Positions 5,591 through 64,000 of a DNA stretch of 64,000 nucleotides are shown here, in pieces; the first letter of the stretch is position 1, and every line of letters begins with the position of its first letter. The stretch is from Vibrio hannami (GTDB lineage Bacteria; Pseudomonadota; Gammaproteobacteria; Enterobacterales; Vibrionaceae): the NCBI RefSeq assembly GCF_029589055.1, contig NZ_JARQZP010000003.1, positions 310,001 to 374,000 of the forward strand, written 5' to 3'. The position numbers and the translations under genes were made by a program. The notes below the pieces were generated by a model. It worked only from the letters and a program-made list of their open reading frames with translations. It was not told the DNA's origin and did no database searches.

Positions 5591-5711
5591 TGTTATGTAC
5601 CGTAAGTTATATCCATTAATAAAGTACTTACGGGGTTGATAGTCGGGTATTAGCAAAGAAAGCTTATGTACCACGAGTAACCCGCTCGTATTGTGAAATC
5701 TATTCACATTT

Positions 5712-5882
5712 ATTCAGGCAGGTCTCCTGGCTCTTGGGTCACTATCTGACAGATTCCCTTCCCGGTATTACCCAGTGGTTTTAGTTCTGTAGACTCGCCA
5801 ATTACAGTTGCGGGCACAGCTCAAGAATTTAACTTGATTCCCTATTAAGCGAATGCAAAAATCATTGCACCTGAAGTGTATT
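5712..5882 (-). promoter_or_regulatory. Cobalamin riboswitch upstream of the periplasmic cbiK operon
   Basis: Read on the minus strand, this leader contains the conserved core around GTGCCCGCAACTGTAA (5798-5815 region) and ends with the B12 box AGCCAGGAGACCTGCC (5716-5733 region). The sequence upstream, with TTCAGGTGCAATGA and AATAGGGAA, matches the usual 5' part of the aptamer. About 120 bases separate the B12 box from the cbiK start. This aptamer represses in the presence of adenosylcobalamin, so the chelatase, exporter and importer should be expressed when B12 is scarce. Confidence 0.93.
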
Positions 5883-6313
5883 TATAATGCCCCAATAAAA
5901 CATTAATTAACTGTGATTAAAATCAATTAATTGATGCTTTATCAAAAAATTGCCATAAATGGATAAATTTTTGTCATTGATAGATAAATTTTTGCTTGAT
6001 ATAAGCTGATAGATAATTCATTAGTGTGTAGTTCAAATATATTATTGTTGATGCCATTGCTGACAATGTTTTTTTACAAGATACACTGTGGTTGATGGTG
6101 GTGTGATTTTAATTTATCTTATTGTTTATAATAAGTATTATATCAATTTGTTTGTTGGTTTGGATGACAAGAAAATCGTATGTTTATTAATTTATTGCTA
6201 CCGTAATTAGATATGGTTGTCGATATTTTTTCATCAATCACTGATATATTCGATATTATATTTAGACAAGAAGTATATAACTTTATTAACGATTGGTTTA
6301 ATTCGAGGGATCG
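5883..6313. other. AT-rich divergent intergenic region
   Basis: 431 bp, strongly AT-rich, between the riboswitch leader (minus) and the kinase gene (plus). It should hold both promoters. I see a palindrome ATCAATTAATTGAT near 5923-5936 and related runs such as ATAAATTTTTG repeated near 5962 and 5984. No open frame or RNA gene is recognisable. Confidence 0.5.
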
Positions 6314-41735: not shown

Positions 41736-41753
41736 TGTGAGAACATTCTCACA
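41736..41753. promoter_or_regulatory. 18-bp palindrome, unknown operator
   Basis: TGTGAGAACATTCTCACA is perfectly symmetric. The half sites resemble CRP sites but the spacing is eight bases instead of six, so I do not call CRP. It lies 17 bp after the FNR-type box and likely overlaps the promoter. Confidence 0.55.
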
Positions 41754-41789
41754 AGCTATTTAGTGCTTGGCGATTATACGAAATTGATT

Positions 41790-41912
41790 CGTAGCCAAAG
41801 TTAAAAGTGAATCAGGTGAGAATCCTGGACTGTACCCGCAACTGTAAGCGGATAGTTTGTATCGGTAGATTTGCAAGTTATCCGTAAGTCAGAACCTGCT
41901 AAATTGCGATAC
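41790..41912 (+). promoter_or_regulatory. Cobalamin riboswitch of the cob/cbi operon
   Basis: The aptamer shows AATCAGGTGAGAATCCTGG, the core ACCCGCAACTGTAAGCGGA (41834-41852 region), and the B12 box TAAGTCAGAACCTGCT (41885-41900 region). About 130 bases separate it from the cbiDC start, and they contain the hairpin at 41949-41994. Repression by adenosylcobalamin is expected. Confidence 0.93.
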
Positions 41913-41948
41913 CCGAATAATTCGGGAACAGATCAAATAGAACAATCT

Positions 41949-54945: not shown

Positions 54946-55756
54946 CTATGTAGATAGTAAAGAAAGCGGGCTGGTGACATTGCTTGCACCTCGGTTAAGT
55001 ACGTGAGTATATATTTGGGTCGTTTTTACATCTTTGTGACCTAACTGCTCTTGGACTGTTCGTATGTCGGCTCTCGATTCTAATAGATGAGTCGCGAAAC
55101 TGTGCCTTAATGTATGGCAGGTAACGTGTTTGGATATTTTTGCTTTTCTGGATGCTTGCTTAATTGCTTTGCTCAGTGCTGTAGAGTCGATGTGGTGACG
55201 TCTAATCAAGCCTGTTTCAGGATCGCCAGATAGTTTTCTTGAAGGGAATAGAAATTGCCATTGAAGCTCCTTTGCCTTGCCAGACCCTAACGACACCATA
55301 ATCGAAGTCGATATCTTGATACCGCAATCGCAGGAGTTCCATTTGCCTTAGGCCGCTACCATATAGCATTTGTACATGGAGTTTATATATGGGGTTTATG
55401 GCCTGGAAAAGTCTGCCTAGTTCTTTACGCGTAAGGACTACAGGAATCTTTCTTTCAATGGCAGAACGTTGAAACCTTAATTCCATTGAGAGTGGACGCT
55501 TAACAATCTCTTTGTACAAAAAGTTTATAGAATTTAAGGCAATAGCTTGTGTCTTCTGTGAAGAGTTTCTAGATGTAGCAAGGTAGGTGAGAAATGCCTC
55601 AACGTGAGATTCGTCCAGTTTGTCAGGGTGCTGTTTCTGATTGTAGTAAATAAACTGTTTAATCCAATAAACGTAGCTTTGTACCGTCTTGAGCGCATAA
55701 TGCCGGGCTAACATATACTCGATGATATATTGAATAAACGGTGAATTTGACTTCAT
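54946..55756 (-). pseudogene. intI: Superintegron integrase with internal deletion and frameshift
   Basis: The first part (from ATG 55756) is a vibrio-type Int[62 protein letters not shown] with the first catalytic Arg, then [16 protein letters not shown]. There, near 55285, it jumps in another frame to [19 protein letters not shown], continuing to [14 protein letters not shown] and TTQIYTHVL with the other catalytic residues (H, R, H, Tyr). About 55 residues expected between GKG and the LFPS motif are missing. This includes the segment that distinguishes integron integrases from other tyrosine recombinases. As read, it cannot produce a working enzyme. Confidence 0.9.
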
Positions 55757-55904: not shown

Positions 55905-55973
55905 TTTAGTTCGTGCTATAAACGGACAAACCAGTGTGAGATAGACGGAAAGAAACCGTTTAGAAAGCGTTAT
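55905..55973 (+). other. Integron attI site
   Basis: The region upstream of intI ends in the simple core GCGTTAT (55967-55973), where the cassette array begins. The left boundary is approximate. Placement relative to intI is as expected. Confidence 0.65.
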
Positions 55974-59625: not shown

Positions 59626-59743
59626 TAACAAAGCATTTAAGAGTGATTCTCAACGCATGGCATTTTTCATTCCATCGTTGGGTTTTGTGTTTATGGTGGT
59701 AAGGTTAAGTTTCGTGGTAGCGTTGCTCACACCTTAATGCGGC
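59626..59743 (+). repeat. attC site 6, interrupted by an insertion sequence
   Basis: Starts TAACAAAGC and runs to CCTTAATGCGGC. The missing end GTTAG is at 61112, on the far side of the element. Joined, the core reads GCGGCGTTAG, a normal attC end. Confidence 0.88.
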
Positions 59744-60016
59744 TACATGGATTCCCCCGGTTGTCAAACGTCCGCTAAACTTCAAGTGATGGGTTTTGGA
59801 CTGCCGCTCTACATTCGACCTACTTATCGACGATTTGCATACGTCGTGGCCCTGATGACTTTGCGCGACTGCGGTGCCTTATTCGTTAGATGACATCAAA
59901 ATGTGTCCGCCGCATTAACAGGCTCTCCGCTAGTGGTCTTAACCTATCTCCATCCATTGCGTCCGCTATGACCCGGTGGGTGTGACTTTTGTTACGCTGC
60001 TTAAGACGTAAAGCGC
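59744..60016 (-). ncRNA. Candidate guide (bridge/seek) RNA region of element A
   Basis: 273 bp downstream of the transposase stop, with no open frame. It has a hairpin CGACG-ATTTGCATA-CGTCG (near 59831), a conserved GCTCTACATTCG (59806-59817) shared with elements B and C, and TTATTCGTTAG (59879-59889), which repeats the element-target junction ATTC-GTTAG. The position matches the guide RNA region known for IS1111-type elements. The orientation and ends are not determined. Confidence 0.55.
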
Positions 60017-61042
60017 TTAGGCAGCGCAATTTTTATACTCTGTTTGATTGTGTAGCAGTGACCAGATGATACGAGCATTTTTAGCTGCAAGTGCCACAAT
60101 GGCTCGATTCATCCCCCTTCGCTCTAATACGCCTCTGCACCATTGGCTTAACCTGTCTTGTTTATCTCCCAGATTGGAGATAACTGTTCTCGCTCCATGA
60201 ACTAAAAGTGTTCGAAGGTACTTGTCGCCATGTTTGGTTATTCTGCCAAGTCGTGGTTTTCCGCCTGTGGAGTATTGCTTGGGCACTAAACCTAACCATG
60301 CAGAGAAGTCCCGACTTTTATCGAACTGGGATCCATTGCCGATTGATGCCAATATTGCGGTTGCTGTTTGAGGGCCAATACCTCTGACTTTCATTATTCG
60401 TTGAACGTTGTCACTGGCTTTAGCAAAGGTATCAAAAGTATGTTCAGTATCAGCAATACGCTGATTGAGCATATCGAGATGCTGAGAGGCATCATGAAGT
60501 ACAGCTCTTGCCAGTTGAGGAAGTTCATTTTCAGCATCTTCAAGCATTAGCGGTACTTGTTTCATTAAAGATGAACGACCGACAGGTATAACTAAGCCGA
60601 ACTCAGAAAGCAGTGCTCTAATACGATTCATGATAGCGGTTCGTTCACGAACCCAATGCTCCCGCATTCGGTGAACGGACAATATGGCTTGTTGCTCGGG
60701 CGATTTAATCGGAACAAATCGGGTAGAAGGTCGCTGAACCGCTTCGCAGATAGCAACGGCATCATCGAGGTCGTTCTTGCCTTTAGTTCGATATGGTGCG
60801 ACATACTTAGCTGCCATGATGCGTGGGTCATGTCCGAGTTTTTGAAGTGTCCTCGCCCAATAGTGTGCACCGCCACACGCTTCAAGTCCTATACGCATAG
60901 GTGGCATATTTGCTATTGTAGTCAGCAAGTTAGAGCGGTTAACGGATTTGTGGATTAGAACTTTACCATTCTGGTCGACAGCATGAAGACTGAAGTGGTT
61001 TTTAGCTAAGTCGATACCGCAGAAAAAAGAATAATCAGACAT
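60017..61042 (-). CDS. IS110/IS1111-family transposase, element A
   Basis: 341 residues from ATG 61042 (GGAGG five bases upstream). The N-terminal DEDD nuclease-like domain shows Asp in FCGIDLAKNHFSLHAVD, Glu in RIGLEACGGAHYWAR and two Asp in KNDLDDAVAICEAV. The C-terminal Transposase_20 domain begins VRGIGPQTATAILASIG and has PKQYSTGGKPRLGRITKHGDK, where the Ser is the probable nucleophile. It looks complete. It directs cut-and-paste with a structured RNA in this family. Confidence 0.93.
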   Translation of the reverse strand: MSDYSFFCGIDLAKNHFSLHAVDQNGKVLIHKSVNRSNLLTTIANMPPMRIGLEACGGAHYWARTLQKLGHDPRIMAAKYVAPYRTKGKNDLDDAVAICEAVQRPSTRFVPIKSPEQQAILSVHRMREHWVRERTAIMNRIRALLSEFGLVIPVGRSSLMKQVPLMLEDAENELPQLARAVLHDASQHLDMLNQRIADTEHTFDTFAKASDNVQRIMKVRGIGPQTATAILASIGNGSQFDKSRDFSAWLGLVPKQYSTGGKPRLGRITKHGDKYLRTLLVHGARTVISNLGDKQDRLSQWCRGVLERRGMNRAIVALAAKNARIIWSLLHNQTEYKNCAA

Positions 61043-61133
61043 GGTGCCTCCGGTTTTAATAATGACCACATAAGTGTGGCTGATCCTCGGGAGGGGGAGT
61101 CCATGTCATTCGTTAGTTGCCCAGCGCCTGAAG

Positions 61134-61412
61134 TTAGCTTGTCGGGAACTTCTGCTTTTGATGGAGTACACGCATGATACGAATGATTTCACCCTCAACC
61201 CAGTACGAGACAATCATCGAAATTTCAGGAATGATCAGCAGCCTACCTCGTATTCCATCACGCTGAACTCCCATTAAAGGTTGCTCTAACAGGCACTCAA
61301 CTTTTGACTCAATGAGGTCATCAGTTTTTTCGGCTGCTGCTGGGTTAAAGTCGTATAGAAATTCAAAGATCTTCTCACGATCATTTAGAGATTCTTCTTC
61401 CCAGACAATCAT
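61134..61412 (-). CDS. RelE/ParE-family toxin
   Basis: 92 residues: MIVWEEESLNDREKIFEFLYD at the start, NPAAAEKTDDLIESKVECLLEQP and GRLLIIPEISMIVSYWVE, which match the plasmid-stabilisation (ParE/RelE) fold. It lies in a cassette but points against the array, with the antitoxin gene upstream overlapping by 4 bp. The target, ribosome or gyrase, is not readable from sequence. Confidence 0.87.
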   Translation of the reverse strand: MIVWEEESLNDREKIFEFLYDFNPAAAEKTDDLIESKVECLLEQPLMGVQRDGIRGRLLIIPEISMIVSYWVEGEIIRIMRVLHQKQKFPTS

Positions 61413-61693
61413 TGGTTGCCTCGGTTACGAATTCTTGCTTTACGCTCTTCCATTCGAGACTTTGCTGTATCGTGGTCAACAAAAACGGCTTTACCTGAGT
61501 CATACTTCTCAAATGCTAGGTTTACCTGTTCTGTTAACCAAGCATCATGCGATAATGTTTTTCTTTGCTGTTCAGCTAGTTGCTCAGTGAGTTCACGGCA
61601 AGCATCACTAAGTGTTCGGCCTTGGCTCTCTGCCATTTGCTGGGCTAGACGTTTGGTTTCTTCGTCAACACGAAATTGAATTCTAGTGTCCAT
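61409..61693 (-). CDS. RelB/DinJ-family antitoxin
   Basis: 94 residues from ATG 61693 (GAGGAATGCATT upstream); a longer reading to 61729 adds an unconserved leader. DTRIQFRVDEETKRLAQQMAE is the ribbon-helix-helix DNA-binding part of DinJ/RelB proteins, followed by an acidic toxin-binding tail. It should bind the toxin and repress its own promoter, which must lie between 61694 and 61749 because the module points against the array. Confidence 0.87.
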   Translation of the reverse strand: MDTRIQFRVDEETKRLAQQMAESQGRTLSDACRELTEQLAEQQRKTLSHDAWLTEQVNLAFEKYDSGKAVFVDHDTAKSRMEERKARIRNRGNQ

Positions 61694-61749
61694 AATGCAT
61701 TCCTCTTGTGTGTGTACAAATGTTAGCACTACACATTGGGTCGGGCAAC

Positions 61750-61862
61750 TAACAAATTGCTTAAGAGTGACGGCTAACCTTGGGCATTTTCGGTTCGGTT
61801 GGCTTTAGTGTTTATGGTGGCATTGTTTGGGTCTAGTGGTGTTAACCGCACCTTAGCAAGGC
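61750..61862 (+). repeat. attC site 7, interrupted by an insertion sequence
   Basis: Starts TAACAAATTGC and runs to CCTTAGCAAGGC. The end GTTATATG lies at 63196 beyond element B. Joined it gives CAAGGCGTTAT. Confidence 0.88.
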
Positions 61863-62088
61863 TACATGGACTCCCTCTTTTGTCAACAATAGCTACCGCT
61901 GACAACAGTGGATCGGACAGCAGCTCTACATTCGGTGCTTCATCGGATTTTACCCGTCACCCTGATGATATTCGCTTGATGCTGGCCTCATTCGTTAGAC
62001 AGTGTTTTCCACTTTCTTGCTAAACAGGCTTTAGCATCTCGGTCTGAACATATTGTCATCAATGGCTATTGCTTTGATTCGGTAAGGG
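61863..62088 (-). ncRNA. Candidate guide (bridge/seek) RNA region of element B
   Basis: 226 bp without an open frame, downstream of the transposase stop. It shares GCTCTACATTCG (61923-61934) with the other elements and has TCATTCGTTAG (61988-61998), which matches the right junction of the element with attC (TCATTC-GTTA). The 5' and 3' ends of any transcript are unknown. Confidence 0.55.
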
Positions 62089-63117
62089 CTAACCGCTTAT
62101 ATAGTTAGCGTTATACTCGTTGTCTGTTGTTAATAGTGCCCAAATTATTCGAGCGTTTTTGGCTGCTAGGGCGACAGCCGCTCGTTTGTATCCTCGTCTT
62201 TCAACGAGCTGTTGTATCCATAAACTGTTTCTATCGGTTTTCTCTTTACAGCGGGCAATGACAGCTCTCGCACCATGAATAAGCAGAGTACGAATGTGCT
62301 TTTCGCCTCTTTTACTGATACGACCAAGATGTACATTACCACCTGTCGAATATTGCCTTGGTACTAATCCTATCCACGCCGCGAATTGGCGACTGGTACC
62401 AAACTGTTTGCCATCACTGACGGTTGCGACTATAGCTGTTGCGCTGTGCTCCCCAACCCCAGGGACGGCCATGAGCTTGGCTGCTTGCTTCATTTCCTTA
62501 CTCAGGTGATAGACTTTTCTATCATAGCGAAGGATTTCTTCGTTAAGGTGGCGGATGTTGTTTACTAAATCACTCAGTAGTTCCCGAGCAAGAAAAGGAA
62601 TGCCATTTTCGGCATCTTCGAGAATATCGGGCACCATTTTCTGAAGTGGATAGCGACCTTGAGGAATGATGATGCCAAACTCGGACAGTAAGCCACGAAG
62701 TTGATTAATGGTCGCGGTTCGACTTTTTACTAGACTATGCCGTATTCGATGTAGGCAAAGTACGGCTTGCTGCTCTTCGCTTTTAACCGAGACAAATCGA
62801 GTTTTTGGCCTAGAGACAGCTTCACAAATGGCTTCTGCATCATTCGGGTCGTTCTTCTCGTTTTGTCGGTATGGAATGACAAACTTAGACGCCATAATTT
62901 TAGGCGTATGACCCAGCTTTTTAAGTTCTCGTGACCAGTGATGAGCACCTGAGCAGGCTTCCATCCCAATAATACACGGTGGAATATTGGCTAATGTGTC
63001 TAAGAGTTTGTTTCTTTTAACAGTTTTGCGTAAGACGCACTTGCCATATGCATCTACGCCATGAATACTGAATACATTCTTGGCAAGATCAACGCCAATA
63101 GTTTGAATGGTGGACAT
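62089..63117 (-). CDS. IS110/IS1111-family transposase, element B
   Basis: 342 residues from ATG 63117 with GGAGG before it. DEDD motifs are IGVDLAKNVFSIHGVD, IGMEACSGAHHWSRE and KNDPNDAEAICEAV. The C-terminal domain has VPGVGEHSATAIVATVS and PRQYSTGGNVHLGRISKRGEK. It is intact, and about as similar to the element A protein as two related families would be (many conserved blocks, different linkers). Confidence 0.93.
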   Translation of the reverse strand: MSTIQTIGVDLAKNVFSIHGVDAYGKCVLRKTVKRNKLLDTLANIPPCIIGMEACSGAHHWSRELKKLGHTPKIMASKFVIPYRQNEKNDPNDAEAICEAVSRPKTRFVSVKSEEQQAVLCLHRIRHSLVKSRTATINQLRGLLSEFGIIIPQGRYPLQKMVPDILEDAENGIPFLARELLSDLVNNIRHLNEEILRYDRKVYHLSKEMKQAAKLMAVPGVGEHSATAIVATVSDGKQFGTSRQFAAWIGLVPRQYSTGGNVHLGRISKRGEKHIRTLLIHGARAVIARCKEKTDRNSLWIQQLVERRGYKRAAVALAAKNARIIWALLTTDNEYNANYISG

Positions 63118-63196
63118 AGTAACCTCCAGATTCTAAGCGTATCCATAGTTAACTATGGCACGCTGCGGCTCGGGTAGAGGGAGTCCATATCATTCG

Positions 63197-63514
63197 TTAT
63201 ATGCCAGTGATTAAGAAGTCAATCGCTGCAATGATCTCATCCCGAAAAGTACTTAGCTCATTCACAGGGTCACGTAGGATTTTCGTTGGAACACTAGCCA
63301 TTTGGTGTGTCAGGATCACGAAGTCACCTTCGTCAATGTGAATCACAGGACAAAGATGAGTAGGGGCTTTCTTGTCAAGAAATTCGACAGGAGTTAGTGG
63401 GATGACTAGTCGTGTATTAAGTGTATCCAAAAGTTCACTTTGTACATCGACAAAGTATGGGTAAGCCTTAGCGGTGTTTTTATCGTTGTTTGGGTATAAA
63501 GCAAATTGTGACAT
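63197..63514 (-). CDS. ccdB: CcdB gyrase-poisoning toxin
   Basis: 105 residues, very similar by eye to the chromosomal CcdB of Vibrio fischeri: MSQFALYPNNDKNTAKAYPY at the start, NTRLVIPLTPVEFLDKKAP and HIDEGDFVILTHQMASVP, with the C-terminal FLITGI. CcdB traps DNA gyrase. The last codons and the stop TAA are formed by the attC core bases GTTATATGCC, right at the insertion-sequence junction. The gene points against the cassette array. Confidence 0.93.
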   Translation of the reverse strand: MSQFALYPNNDKNTAKAYPYFVDVQSELLDTLNTRLVIPLTPVEFLDKKAPTHLCPVIHIDEGDFVILTHQMASVPTKILRDPVNELSTFRDEIIAAIDFLITGI

Positions 63515-63759
63515 TAGAATACTCGGTAAGAATCAGAGAATAGTCCGTGGTTTTCAGCCAGTTCGTTACAAGCATTAATGGCTTCCGAATTTTGCTCTAA
63601 CCATTCCTTTTTTAGCAGTTGACTAACTTCTTTCTCTAAAGCTTTCTCCATAGTCGCAGATAGATTGACGTTAAGGCGTTTTGCTTCAGCAAGTAATTCA
63701 CTGTTTAAGCTTAAGTTTGCTGCTTTTTTGGGGGCTTGTGTATTGTATGTATTTCTCAT
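63514..63759 (-). CDS. ccdA: CcdA antitoxin
   Basis: 81 residues: AANLSLNSELLAEAKRLNVNLSATMEKAL in outline (ribbon-helix-helix DNA-binding part) and a C-terminal toxin-binding tail with FSDSYRVF. It overlaps the toxin start by one base (TAATG). Transcription should start between 63760 and 63816, opposite to the array. Confidence 0.92.
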   Translation of the reverse strand: MRNTYNTQAPKKAANLSLNSELLAEAKRLNVNLSATMEKALEKEVSQLLKKEWLEQNSEAINACNELAENHGLFSDSYRVF

Positions 63760-63928: not shown

Positions 63929-64000
63929 GACATGGATTCCCCAGGTTGTCAAACGCCCGCTAAACTTCAGGTGATGGGTTTTGGACTGCCGCTCTACATT
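63929..64000 (-). mobile_element. IS110/IS1111-family element C, partial at window end
   Basis: The 72 visible bases start GACATGGATTCCCC and share long stretches with the left end of element A (AACTTCAGGTGATGGGTTTT near 63964, then GGACTGCCGCTCTACATT). It is the third element in the same attC position and orientation. Confidence 0.82.

What the first reader, a model, noticed from the sequence alone, without database searches (positions are those of the whole stretch)
59744..62088. Candidate guide RNAs that carry the attC junction sequence
The non-coding ends of A and B both contain ATTCGTTAG, which is the same string formed where the element end (ATTC) meets the attC core (GTTAG). Both, and C, share GCTCTACATTCG. 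In IS110/IS1111 elements a structured RNA from the non-coding end pairs with donor and target. These strings are likely the guide loops that make the elements recognise attC. If so, A and B are natural, independently evolved examples of RNA-guided recognition of an integron site.
Basis: partly seen in the sequence, partly recalled or inferred. Interest (0 to 1): 0.8.

Follow-up and report, generated by a model that had tools for sequence, protein, structure and literature searches.

The report
RNA-guided elements aimed at integron sites
Two jumping elements sitting in a Vibrio-type gene-capture array carry a predicted guide RNA with short stretches that match both sides of the array's recombination site, and among relatives the match changes together with the landing site, so the RNA likely decides where they insert; guide RNAs that match this kind of site are already known from related elements.

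Summary
The strings are real. A (59744-61111) and B (61863-63195) are IS1111-type elements in attC sites. Transposase-bound RNAs matching attC are already published for ISKpn4 and ISPst6, so these are new members of a known kind. ATTCGTTAG (RNA CUAACGAAU) fits the left-target guide. GCTCTACATTCG (RNA CGAAUGUAGAGC) is not an attC guide: its AUGUAG matches the element's own right end, and across 15 IS1111 elements that box follows the right end (0 of 10,000 permutations). The part that varies with the site was missed: a 10-nt slot 5' of CUAACG (A UUAAUGCGGC, B UUUAGCAAGA) complementary to the attC spacer. In 28 B-family insertions with 8 slot strings, slot and flank covary (2 of 40,320 relabellings reach the observed match). 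Slots aimed at another attC class and at attI-type sites occur; the attI-slot RNA forms one clade while its transposases do not (p-AU 8.5e-48), so the RNA module was probably exchanged between elements. A and B fold alike and share a 100/100 transposase group with the same left-end start and CUAACGAAU, so 'independently evolved' is not supported. Transcription and activity are untested.

The parts
59744..61111 (-). Element A, whole IS1111-type insertion (1368 bp) in an attC site
   Evidence: LE TAAC|GAATGAC-ATGGACTCC and RE CCAT-GTA|GCC with inverted sub-terminal repeats; uninterrupted YTAACGCCGCATTAAG in 9 of 41 genomes
60017..61069 (-). A transposase (DEDD, IS110/IS1111)
   Evidence: PF01548 + PF02371; NF033542 'IS110 family RNA-guided transposase', 352.6 bits against a cut-off of 140
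59744..60016 (-). A non-coding end carrying the predicted guide RNA
   Evidence: Conserved fold in A (20 sequences) and in 29 A, B and other sequences
59908..59918 (-). A right-target guide, RNA UUAAUGCGGCG, complementary to the right flank GCCGCATTAA plus the core base
   Evidence: Matches its own flank at 59734-59743; 22 of 46 A-family insertions pair at all ten positions allowing wobble
59881..59889 (-).
   Evidence: Left flank ends TAAC in 42 of 46 A insertions
59855..59859 (-). A left-end donor guide, RNA GUCAU (complement of LE ATGAC)
   Evidence: Box covaries with the LE across 15 elements, 0 of 10,000 permutations reach
59809..59814 (-).
   Evidence: Equals RE ATGTA + G; box covaries with the RE, 0 of 10,000 permutations reach
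61863..63195 (-). Element B, whole IS1111-type insertion (1333 bp) in another attC site
   Evidence: LE TAAC|GAATGAT-ATGGACTCC, RE CCAT-GTA|GCC
62089..63117 (-). B transposase (DEDD, 55% identical to A)
   Evidence: PF01548 + PF02371; NF033542 349 bits; identity
61863..62088 (-). B non-coding end carrying the predicted guide RNA
   Evidence: Same fold as A
62016..62023 (-). B right-target guide, RNA UUAGCAAG, complementary to its right flank (GCCTTGCTAAG)
   Evidence: 8-nt match to its own flank at 61853-61860; slot covaries with flank across 28 B insertions
61990..61998 (-). B left-target guide, RNA CUAACGAAU
   Evidence: Left flank TAAC in 28 of 28 B insertions
61965..61971 (-). B left-end donor guide, RNA AUAUCAU (complement of LE ATGATAT)
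61926..61931 (-). B right-end donor guide, RNA AUGUAG
59734..59743 (+). attC spacer half TTAATGCGGC at A's insertion point
   Evidence: sequence
61853..61862 (+). attC spacer half TTAGCAAGGC at B's insertion point
   Evidence: sequence
63929..64000 (-). Start of element C, a deleted relative of A (305 bp, runs out of the window)

Best explanation
A and B are IS1111-type insertion sequences seated in attC sites, and the non-coding end of each is predicted to make a guide RNA that would pair with both sides of the attC crossover and with both ends of the element. Shown by sequence: the 5' side of the first internal loop (right-target guide) is complementary to the attC spacer to the right of the crossover, and the 3' side (CUAACG) matches the TAAC of the attC core on the left; a second region holds two boxes that follow the element's left and right ends. 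Inferred: the transposase binds this RNA, the first loop would hold attC and the second the circle junction, and strands are exchanged at the shared G so that the element integrates as TAAC|GAATGAY...ATGTA|GCC. Changing or exchanging the RNA module likely re-aims the element, as relatives suggest whose slot matches another attC class or attI-type sites.
For: Transposase families. Ends and non-coding end downstream of the gene. Right-target slot follows the flank: 28 B insertions, mean unbroken match 7.36 against 3.86 for relabelled guides, 2 of 40,320 permutations reach, identity included. A and B slots go with different attC spacers: GCCGC in 23 of 46 A and 0 of 17 B with slot TTTAATTGGG (p 9.6e-5); GCCCAATTAA in 1 of 46 and 10 of 17 (p 1.5e-6) (copies are not fully independent). 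Slots for another attC class (L070, L071) with uninterrupted sister sites nearby and for attI-type sites (L060, L061, L137, L139). Donor boxes follow LE and RE in 15 elements. Same fold plan in A and B; 97.1% of cells paired against 28-48% when slid. Precedent: ISKpn4 and ISPst6 RNAs bound to their transposases and matching attC (PMC11187229, sections 6, 9, 10, 13 read).
Against: No transcript or binding data. 7 of 17 insertions with slot TTTAATTGGG sit at GCCCTGTTAA or GCCTTGTTAA, with only a 4-nt unbroken match; L059 has a mismatch (5-nt run); L094 (transposase frame with a stop) does not match its flank (4 nt). Only 9 of 46 A insertions match at all ten positions by Watson-Crick pairs alone; spacer position 4 mismatches in 18 of 46; 2 of 46 flanks are internal rearrangements. 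The left half (TAAC) hardly varies, so its pairing cannot be tested by covariation. Two fold controls are not decisive: 9 pairs with changes on both sides, reached by 15 of 500 shuffles, and 21 further pair types, reached by 484 of 500. No empty copy of B's site was found (0 of 41 genomes).
Confidence: 0.88

Rival explanations
1. The transposase protein or the folded attC hairpin selects the site; the string matches are relics of shared ancestry or of captured flanks.
For: Most flanks keep TAAC and many keep TTAA, which a protein could read; some insertions match the slot poorly.
Against: Slot and flank change together within one transposase family 80-100% alike, including a second attC class and attI-type sites. 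Transposases of attI-slot elements do not form a clade while their RNA ends do.
Confidence: 0.06
2. One reading: ATTCGTTAG and GCTCTACATTCG are both attC guides, evolved independently in A and B.
For: Both strings are shared by A and B and are more than chance.
Against: GCTCTACATTCG follows the element's right end, not the target, and is kept almost unchanged in elements with other targets (L060, L070, L134). A, B, L048, L178, L179 and L041 share one group of 19 rows (100/100) with a left end starting GAATGA and CUAACGAAU.
Confidence: 0.03
3. A refinement rather than a rival: the GAAU after CUAAC is a handshake-like guide that pairs with the element's left end after strand exchange, so that CUAACGAAU reads the finished junction.
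For: CUAACGAAU equals the left junction TAAC|GAAT in A, B and L048; handshake guides are shown for IS621 (PMC11208158, passages read).
Against: In IS621 the handshake bases adjoin the right, top-strand guides, not the left ones; the second B copy has CUAACGGAU; no covariation test was possible because the elements with this box share the left-end start GAATGA.
Confidence: 0.35

Closest known systems
ISKpn4, ISPst6, ISPa25 (IS1111 elements that target attC; seekRNA)
   Same: IS1111 type, same kind of target, RNA from the downstream non-coding region with a top-strand match 5' of a bottom-strand match; ISKpn4 and ISPst6 RNAs co-purify with the transposase, ISPa25's is predicted (PMC11187229)
   Different: Their sequences were not at hand, so no direct alignment; here the right-target slot differs between A and B and goes with different attC spacers; the donor boxes are mapped here
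IS1111-attC group (Tetu and Holmes 2008; Post and Hall 2009)
   Same: Insertion into attC (as cited in PMC11187229)
   Different: Neither paper was read: Tetu and Holmes is not held, Post and Hall was not asked for
IS621 bridge RNA (IS110)
   Same: Internal loop with left and right target guides plus separate donor guides; core included in pairing (PMC11208160, PMC11208158, passages)
   Different: Here the RNA region lies downstream of the gene, the guide order is reversed, there are long sub-terminal repeats, and the base shared by target and donor is G rather than CT
ISEc11 and ISXne4 (natural re-direction)
   Same: Related transposases with replaced target-matching RNA (PMC11187229)
   Different: Here eight slot strings within one family, two attC classes and attI-type sites, and RNA and transposase trees in conflict

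Membership tests
IS1111 family | DEDD transposase with PF01548 and PF02371 | tested here: met
IS1111 family | Sub-terminal inverted repeats with short terminal extensions (7 and 3 bp; lengths recalled) | tested here: met
   ATGGACTCC / GGAATCCAT in A, ATGGACTCC / GGAGTCCAT in B; GAATGAY and GTA extensions
IS1111 family | Longer non-coding region downstream of the gene | tested here: met
   273 bp (A) and 226 bp (B) between stop codon and right end
IS1111 elements targeting attC | Insertion at the attC core, TAAC|G | tested here: met
   TAAC in 42 of 46 A and 28 of 28 B insertions; uninterrupted YTAACGCCGCATTAAG in 9 of 41 genomes, clustered in some
[quoted passage not shown]
   by sequence:
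seekRNA / bridge RNA system | Donor-binding segments | tested here: met
   by sequence and permutation only:
seekRNA / bridge RNA system | RNA made and bound by the transposase, needed for insertion | not testable with these tools
   needs RNA sequencing and purification
IS621-type bridge RNA | Handshake guides | tested here: inconclusive
   GAAU fits the left junction but could not be tested by covariation
Rfam families | Match to a described RNA family | tested here: not met
   no gathering-level match in the non-coding ends

The most novel reading that the evidence does not exclude
IS1111 elements of this kind carry the guide RNA as an exchangeable module: by recombination it moves between transposase lineages and re-aims the element within the integron world, from one attC class to another and from attC to attI-type sites.
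Probability: 0.6. Interest if true: 0.75.

Novelty: new member of a known kind. Interest (0 to 1): 0.52.

Why it matters
It gives a natural mutation series for an RNA-guided recombinase: eight slot strings with their sites inside one transposase family, plus donor boxes with their ends across the wider IS1111 family. That makes the pairing rules of this branch testable by simple swaps, and it suggests how a selfish element can follow the changing recombination sites of its host's integrons, including attI-type sites. Aiming at attI by such elements was not seen in the listings of the paper searches made here (two of these lists were capped at 20 of 37 and 20 of 53 papers).

Tried and rejected
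Rfam at gathering level: nothing in the non-coding ends. Plasmid collection for ISKpn4-like relatives by non-coding DNA: only Vibrionaceae records, so no direct comparison with ISKpn4. Exact empty copy of the second attC class in 10 genomes: none; near copies were then found beside the elements. attI reading of the GCTTTATA site: first doubted because no intI lay beside the inserted copies, then 5 of 21 uninterrupted sites proved to have an intI-like frame starting 213-216 bp away (the frame of L163 is only 168 aa long); the other 16 showed none in the stretch held, so the word attI-type is used. L060's site is 79% identical over 208 bases to the same genome's intI-linked site (L159). L137's and L139's sites resemble instead a dispersed repeat (82% and 90% to L176). 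L061's is ambiguous (77% over 156 bases to its own genome's intI-linked L163, 74% over 186 to L176); unrelated pairs in that table reach about 60-70%. Fold of the joined attC strand: weak (z -1.5 and -0.3), not used; the B join carries one extra base from an off-by-one.

Rows dropped: one search gave 92 rows (63 A, 28 B, 1 other) after losing 5 places without a readable right end (L042, L061, L067, L072, L113). L061 and L067 were put back by hand with letters, and L135's slot was corrected by hand; L072, L069 (its box was not matched) and the truncated L140 stay out. Of the 63 A rows 46 are distinct with both ends; of the 28 B rows 26, plus the two put back, make 28. One search used 29 chosen sequences of those at hand. 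One search used 15 elements; the pattern missed L183 and took a wrong stretch for L182 and L005, and they were counted as the script read them. L008 had no readable ends and was not counted; 30 loci were tried, 22 gave a protein that passed the pattern, which with A and B makes 24 rows; it warns of long branches (L005, L119), and the root is the midpoint.

Full report
What is there. The window lies on one contig of a 5.37 Mb genome. The genus is Vibrio by inference: G052 of the same genus has a contig of the same length and a match at the same coordinates as Vibrio maritimus NZ_CP090440.1. Beside a split integron integrase gene (54946-55756, minus strand) runs a short cassette array. Two IS1111-type elements sit in its attC sites: A, 59744-61111, and B, 61863-63195, transposases 55% identical. 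A deleted relative of A (C) begins at 63929, and a deleted relative of B lies beyond the window. Another large contig holds a second A-B pair, its A copy broken. The genome has six exact copies of TAACGAATGAYATGGANTCC, four here and two there.

Ends. In transposase orientation the left junction is TAAC|GAATGAC-ATGG (A) or TAAC|GAATGAT-ATGG (B), and the right junction is CCAT-GTA|GCC. Uninterrupted YTAACGCCGCATTAAG exists 27 times in 9 of 41 genomes, clustered as in arrays in some (8 in G024, 7 in G012), which fixes the insertion point as TAAC|GCC. For B's spacer no uninterrupted copy was found (0 of 41).

Both are present and exceed chance. Read as RNA they are CUAACGAAU and CGAAUGUAGAGC. They belong to two different parts of one RNA.

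The missed guide. Five prime of CUAACG lies a slot whose letters are complementary to the right flank: in A UUAAUGCGGCG against GCCGCATTAA and the core base, in B UUAGCAAG against GCCTTGCTAAG. Among B-family elements the slot varies (80-100% identical transposases; 23 of 227 genus genomes at 1e-125; 33 of 148 at 1e-100, which takes in the A family). Slot to flank: TTTAATTGGG to GCCCAATTAAG (10 of 17; 6 at GCCCTGTTAA, 1 at GCCTTGTTAA), ATTAGCTTGG to GCCAAGCTAAG (1), TTGTGCTCAG to GCTGAGCACAG (2), ACTATAAAGC or TCTATAAAGC to GCTTTATAGAC or GCTTTATATAC (4), TTTAGCAAGA to the window's and the second B copy's spacers (2). Over 28 distinct insertions the mean unbroken match is 7.36 against 3.86 for relabelled guides; 2 of 40,320 relabellings reach it, identity included; class-weighted, 3 of 40,320. 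The slots ACTATAAAGC and TCTATAAAGC are nearly alike, which makes their swap harmless. L094 does not fit (4 nt) and L059 has a mismatch (5 nt).

A against B. The A family has one slot almost throughout; L044 and L117 differ by one letter. Of 46 distinct A insertions 23 have GCCGC, against 0 of 17 B insertions with slot TTTAATTGGG; GCCCAATTAA is 1 of 46 against 10 of 17 (Fisher p 9.6e-5 and 1.5e-6; copies are not fully independent). All ten positions pair, wobble allowed, in 22 of 46; 9 of 46 by Watson-Crick alone. So the guide is a preference with tolerated mismatches, mostly at spacer positions 4-6.

Other attC class and attI-type sites. L070 and L071 sit in an attC class with uninterrupted sisters in the neighbourhood (L129 9280, L130 2169). 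The site AACGCTTTATANACGG was found 21 times in 18 of 148 genomes. At 5 of these 21 an intI-like frame starts 213-216 bp away; these are attI by position. The window has the same layout: CCGTTTAGAAAGC|GTTATG at 55956-55972 (2 mismatches to the query; shuffles reach one such match 18 times in 100, so the layout carries the argument), with the integrase start at 55756. The four inserted elements do not sit beside a recognisable intI; in the stretch of L137 one weak integrase-like match (30% identity) lies about 5 kb away. L060's site is 79% identical over 208 bases to its own genome's intI-linked site; L137's and L139's resemble a dispersed repeat; L061's is ambiguous. I therefore say attI-type.

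Exchange of the RNA module. On the transposase-gene tree (28 rows) the four attI-slot elements do not group (p-AU 8.5e-48). On the tree of the RNA 3' of the target loop (27 rows; L067 left out by the script) they form one clade, 97/97. For the short stretch upstream of the RNA the test is borderline (p-AU 0.052). Exchange of the RNA end by recombination explains this best; convergence in the slot alone would not unite the rest of the RNA.

Donor boxes. In IS1111 elements the box 5' of the second hairpin follows the left end (A GUCAU for GAATGAC, B AUAUCAU for GAATGAT, L048 AUUUCAU for GAATGAA, L184-L186 AUUCCAU for TAATGGA) and the box 3' of it follows the right end (AUGUA, AUCUA, AUAUA, AUACA). 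Over 15 elements 0 of 10,000 permutations reach the observed mean for either box; the right-end box matches fully in 14 of 15, the left-end box has a run of 7 in 9 of 15 and of 5 in 3 more. The elements are related, so permutations overstate independence.

Fold. RNAalifold gives A (20 sequences) and B (8) the same plan: stem 1, an internal loop with the two target guides on its two sides, a small hairpin, then a second stem-loop. In 29 sequences 97.1% of cells pair, against 28-48% for slid partners and none of 500 shuffles; but 9 pairs with changes on both sides are reached by 15 of 500 shuffles and 21 further pair types by 484 of 500, so those two counts do not support the fold by themselves.

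Known or new. PMC11187229 (abstract, sections 6, 9, 10, 13 and passages read) shows RNA bound to the ISKpn4 and ISPst6 transposases with both target matches, notes ISPa25 with the same matches at 46% identity, and describes natural re-direction in ISEc11/ISXne4. A and B are therefore new members of a known kind. Not seen in the listings of the held-paper searches (some capped): slot series following attC classes, attI-type aiming, or RNA-module exchange. Preprints and most subscription papers are not held. One paper reports an IS1111-group element disrupting attC sites in integrons (PMC11616780, passages).

Common origin. A, B, the Thiobacillus element L048 and three others share one group of 19 of 24 rows, 100/100, with a left end starting GAATGA and CUAACGAAU; independent evolution is not supported. 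Rooting is by midpoint only.

Mechanism, shown and inferred. Shown by sequence: ends, target matches, donor matches, covariation, fold plan. Inferred: transcription, binding, pairing in the complex, exchange at the shared G, and any handshake role of GAAU (analogy with IS621, PMC11208158, passages only).

Noticed in passing
window 54946-55756, minus strand: Integron integrase gene is split into two overlapping frames (55217-55756 and 54946-55299), so it is probably inactive; described only.
   Followed up: partly
window 61134-61729 and 63197-63759, minus strand: Cassettes between the elements carry toxin-antitoxin pairs (ParE-like with a RelB-like partner just under its cut-off; CcdB/CcdA).
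   Followed up: no
L012 9187-12847 (another contig of the same genome): A second A-B pair; this A copy is broken and its right end is GTC instead of GTA, as in element C, although the RNA box still reads AUGUAG. L060 has GTG and L117 ATA. Unexplained.
   Followed up: partly
L158, L160, L162, L165, L170, L171, L174, L176: A dispersed repeat of about 200 bases begins with the attI-type core GCTTTATANACGG after AAC, without intI; in 7 of these 8 a frame starts 20-110 bases away on the other side (not L165). It may be an orphan attI or a cassette-like site; compare the delta-attI cassettes of PMC12901181 (abstract start in a search listing only).
   Followed up: partly
L094 (G052 C3 87000-89400): Slot TTTAGTAAGG does not match the flank GTTTATGCTAAG; the transposase frame has a stop.
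   Followed up: no
window 60017-61069: A's transposase shows a weak match to the TIGR-Tas endonuclease model (26.7 bits, cut-off 100).
   Followed up: no
window 5700-5889 and 41744-41917: Two cobalamin riboswitches.
   Followed up: no
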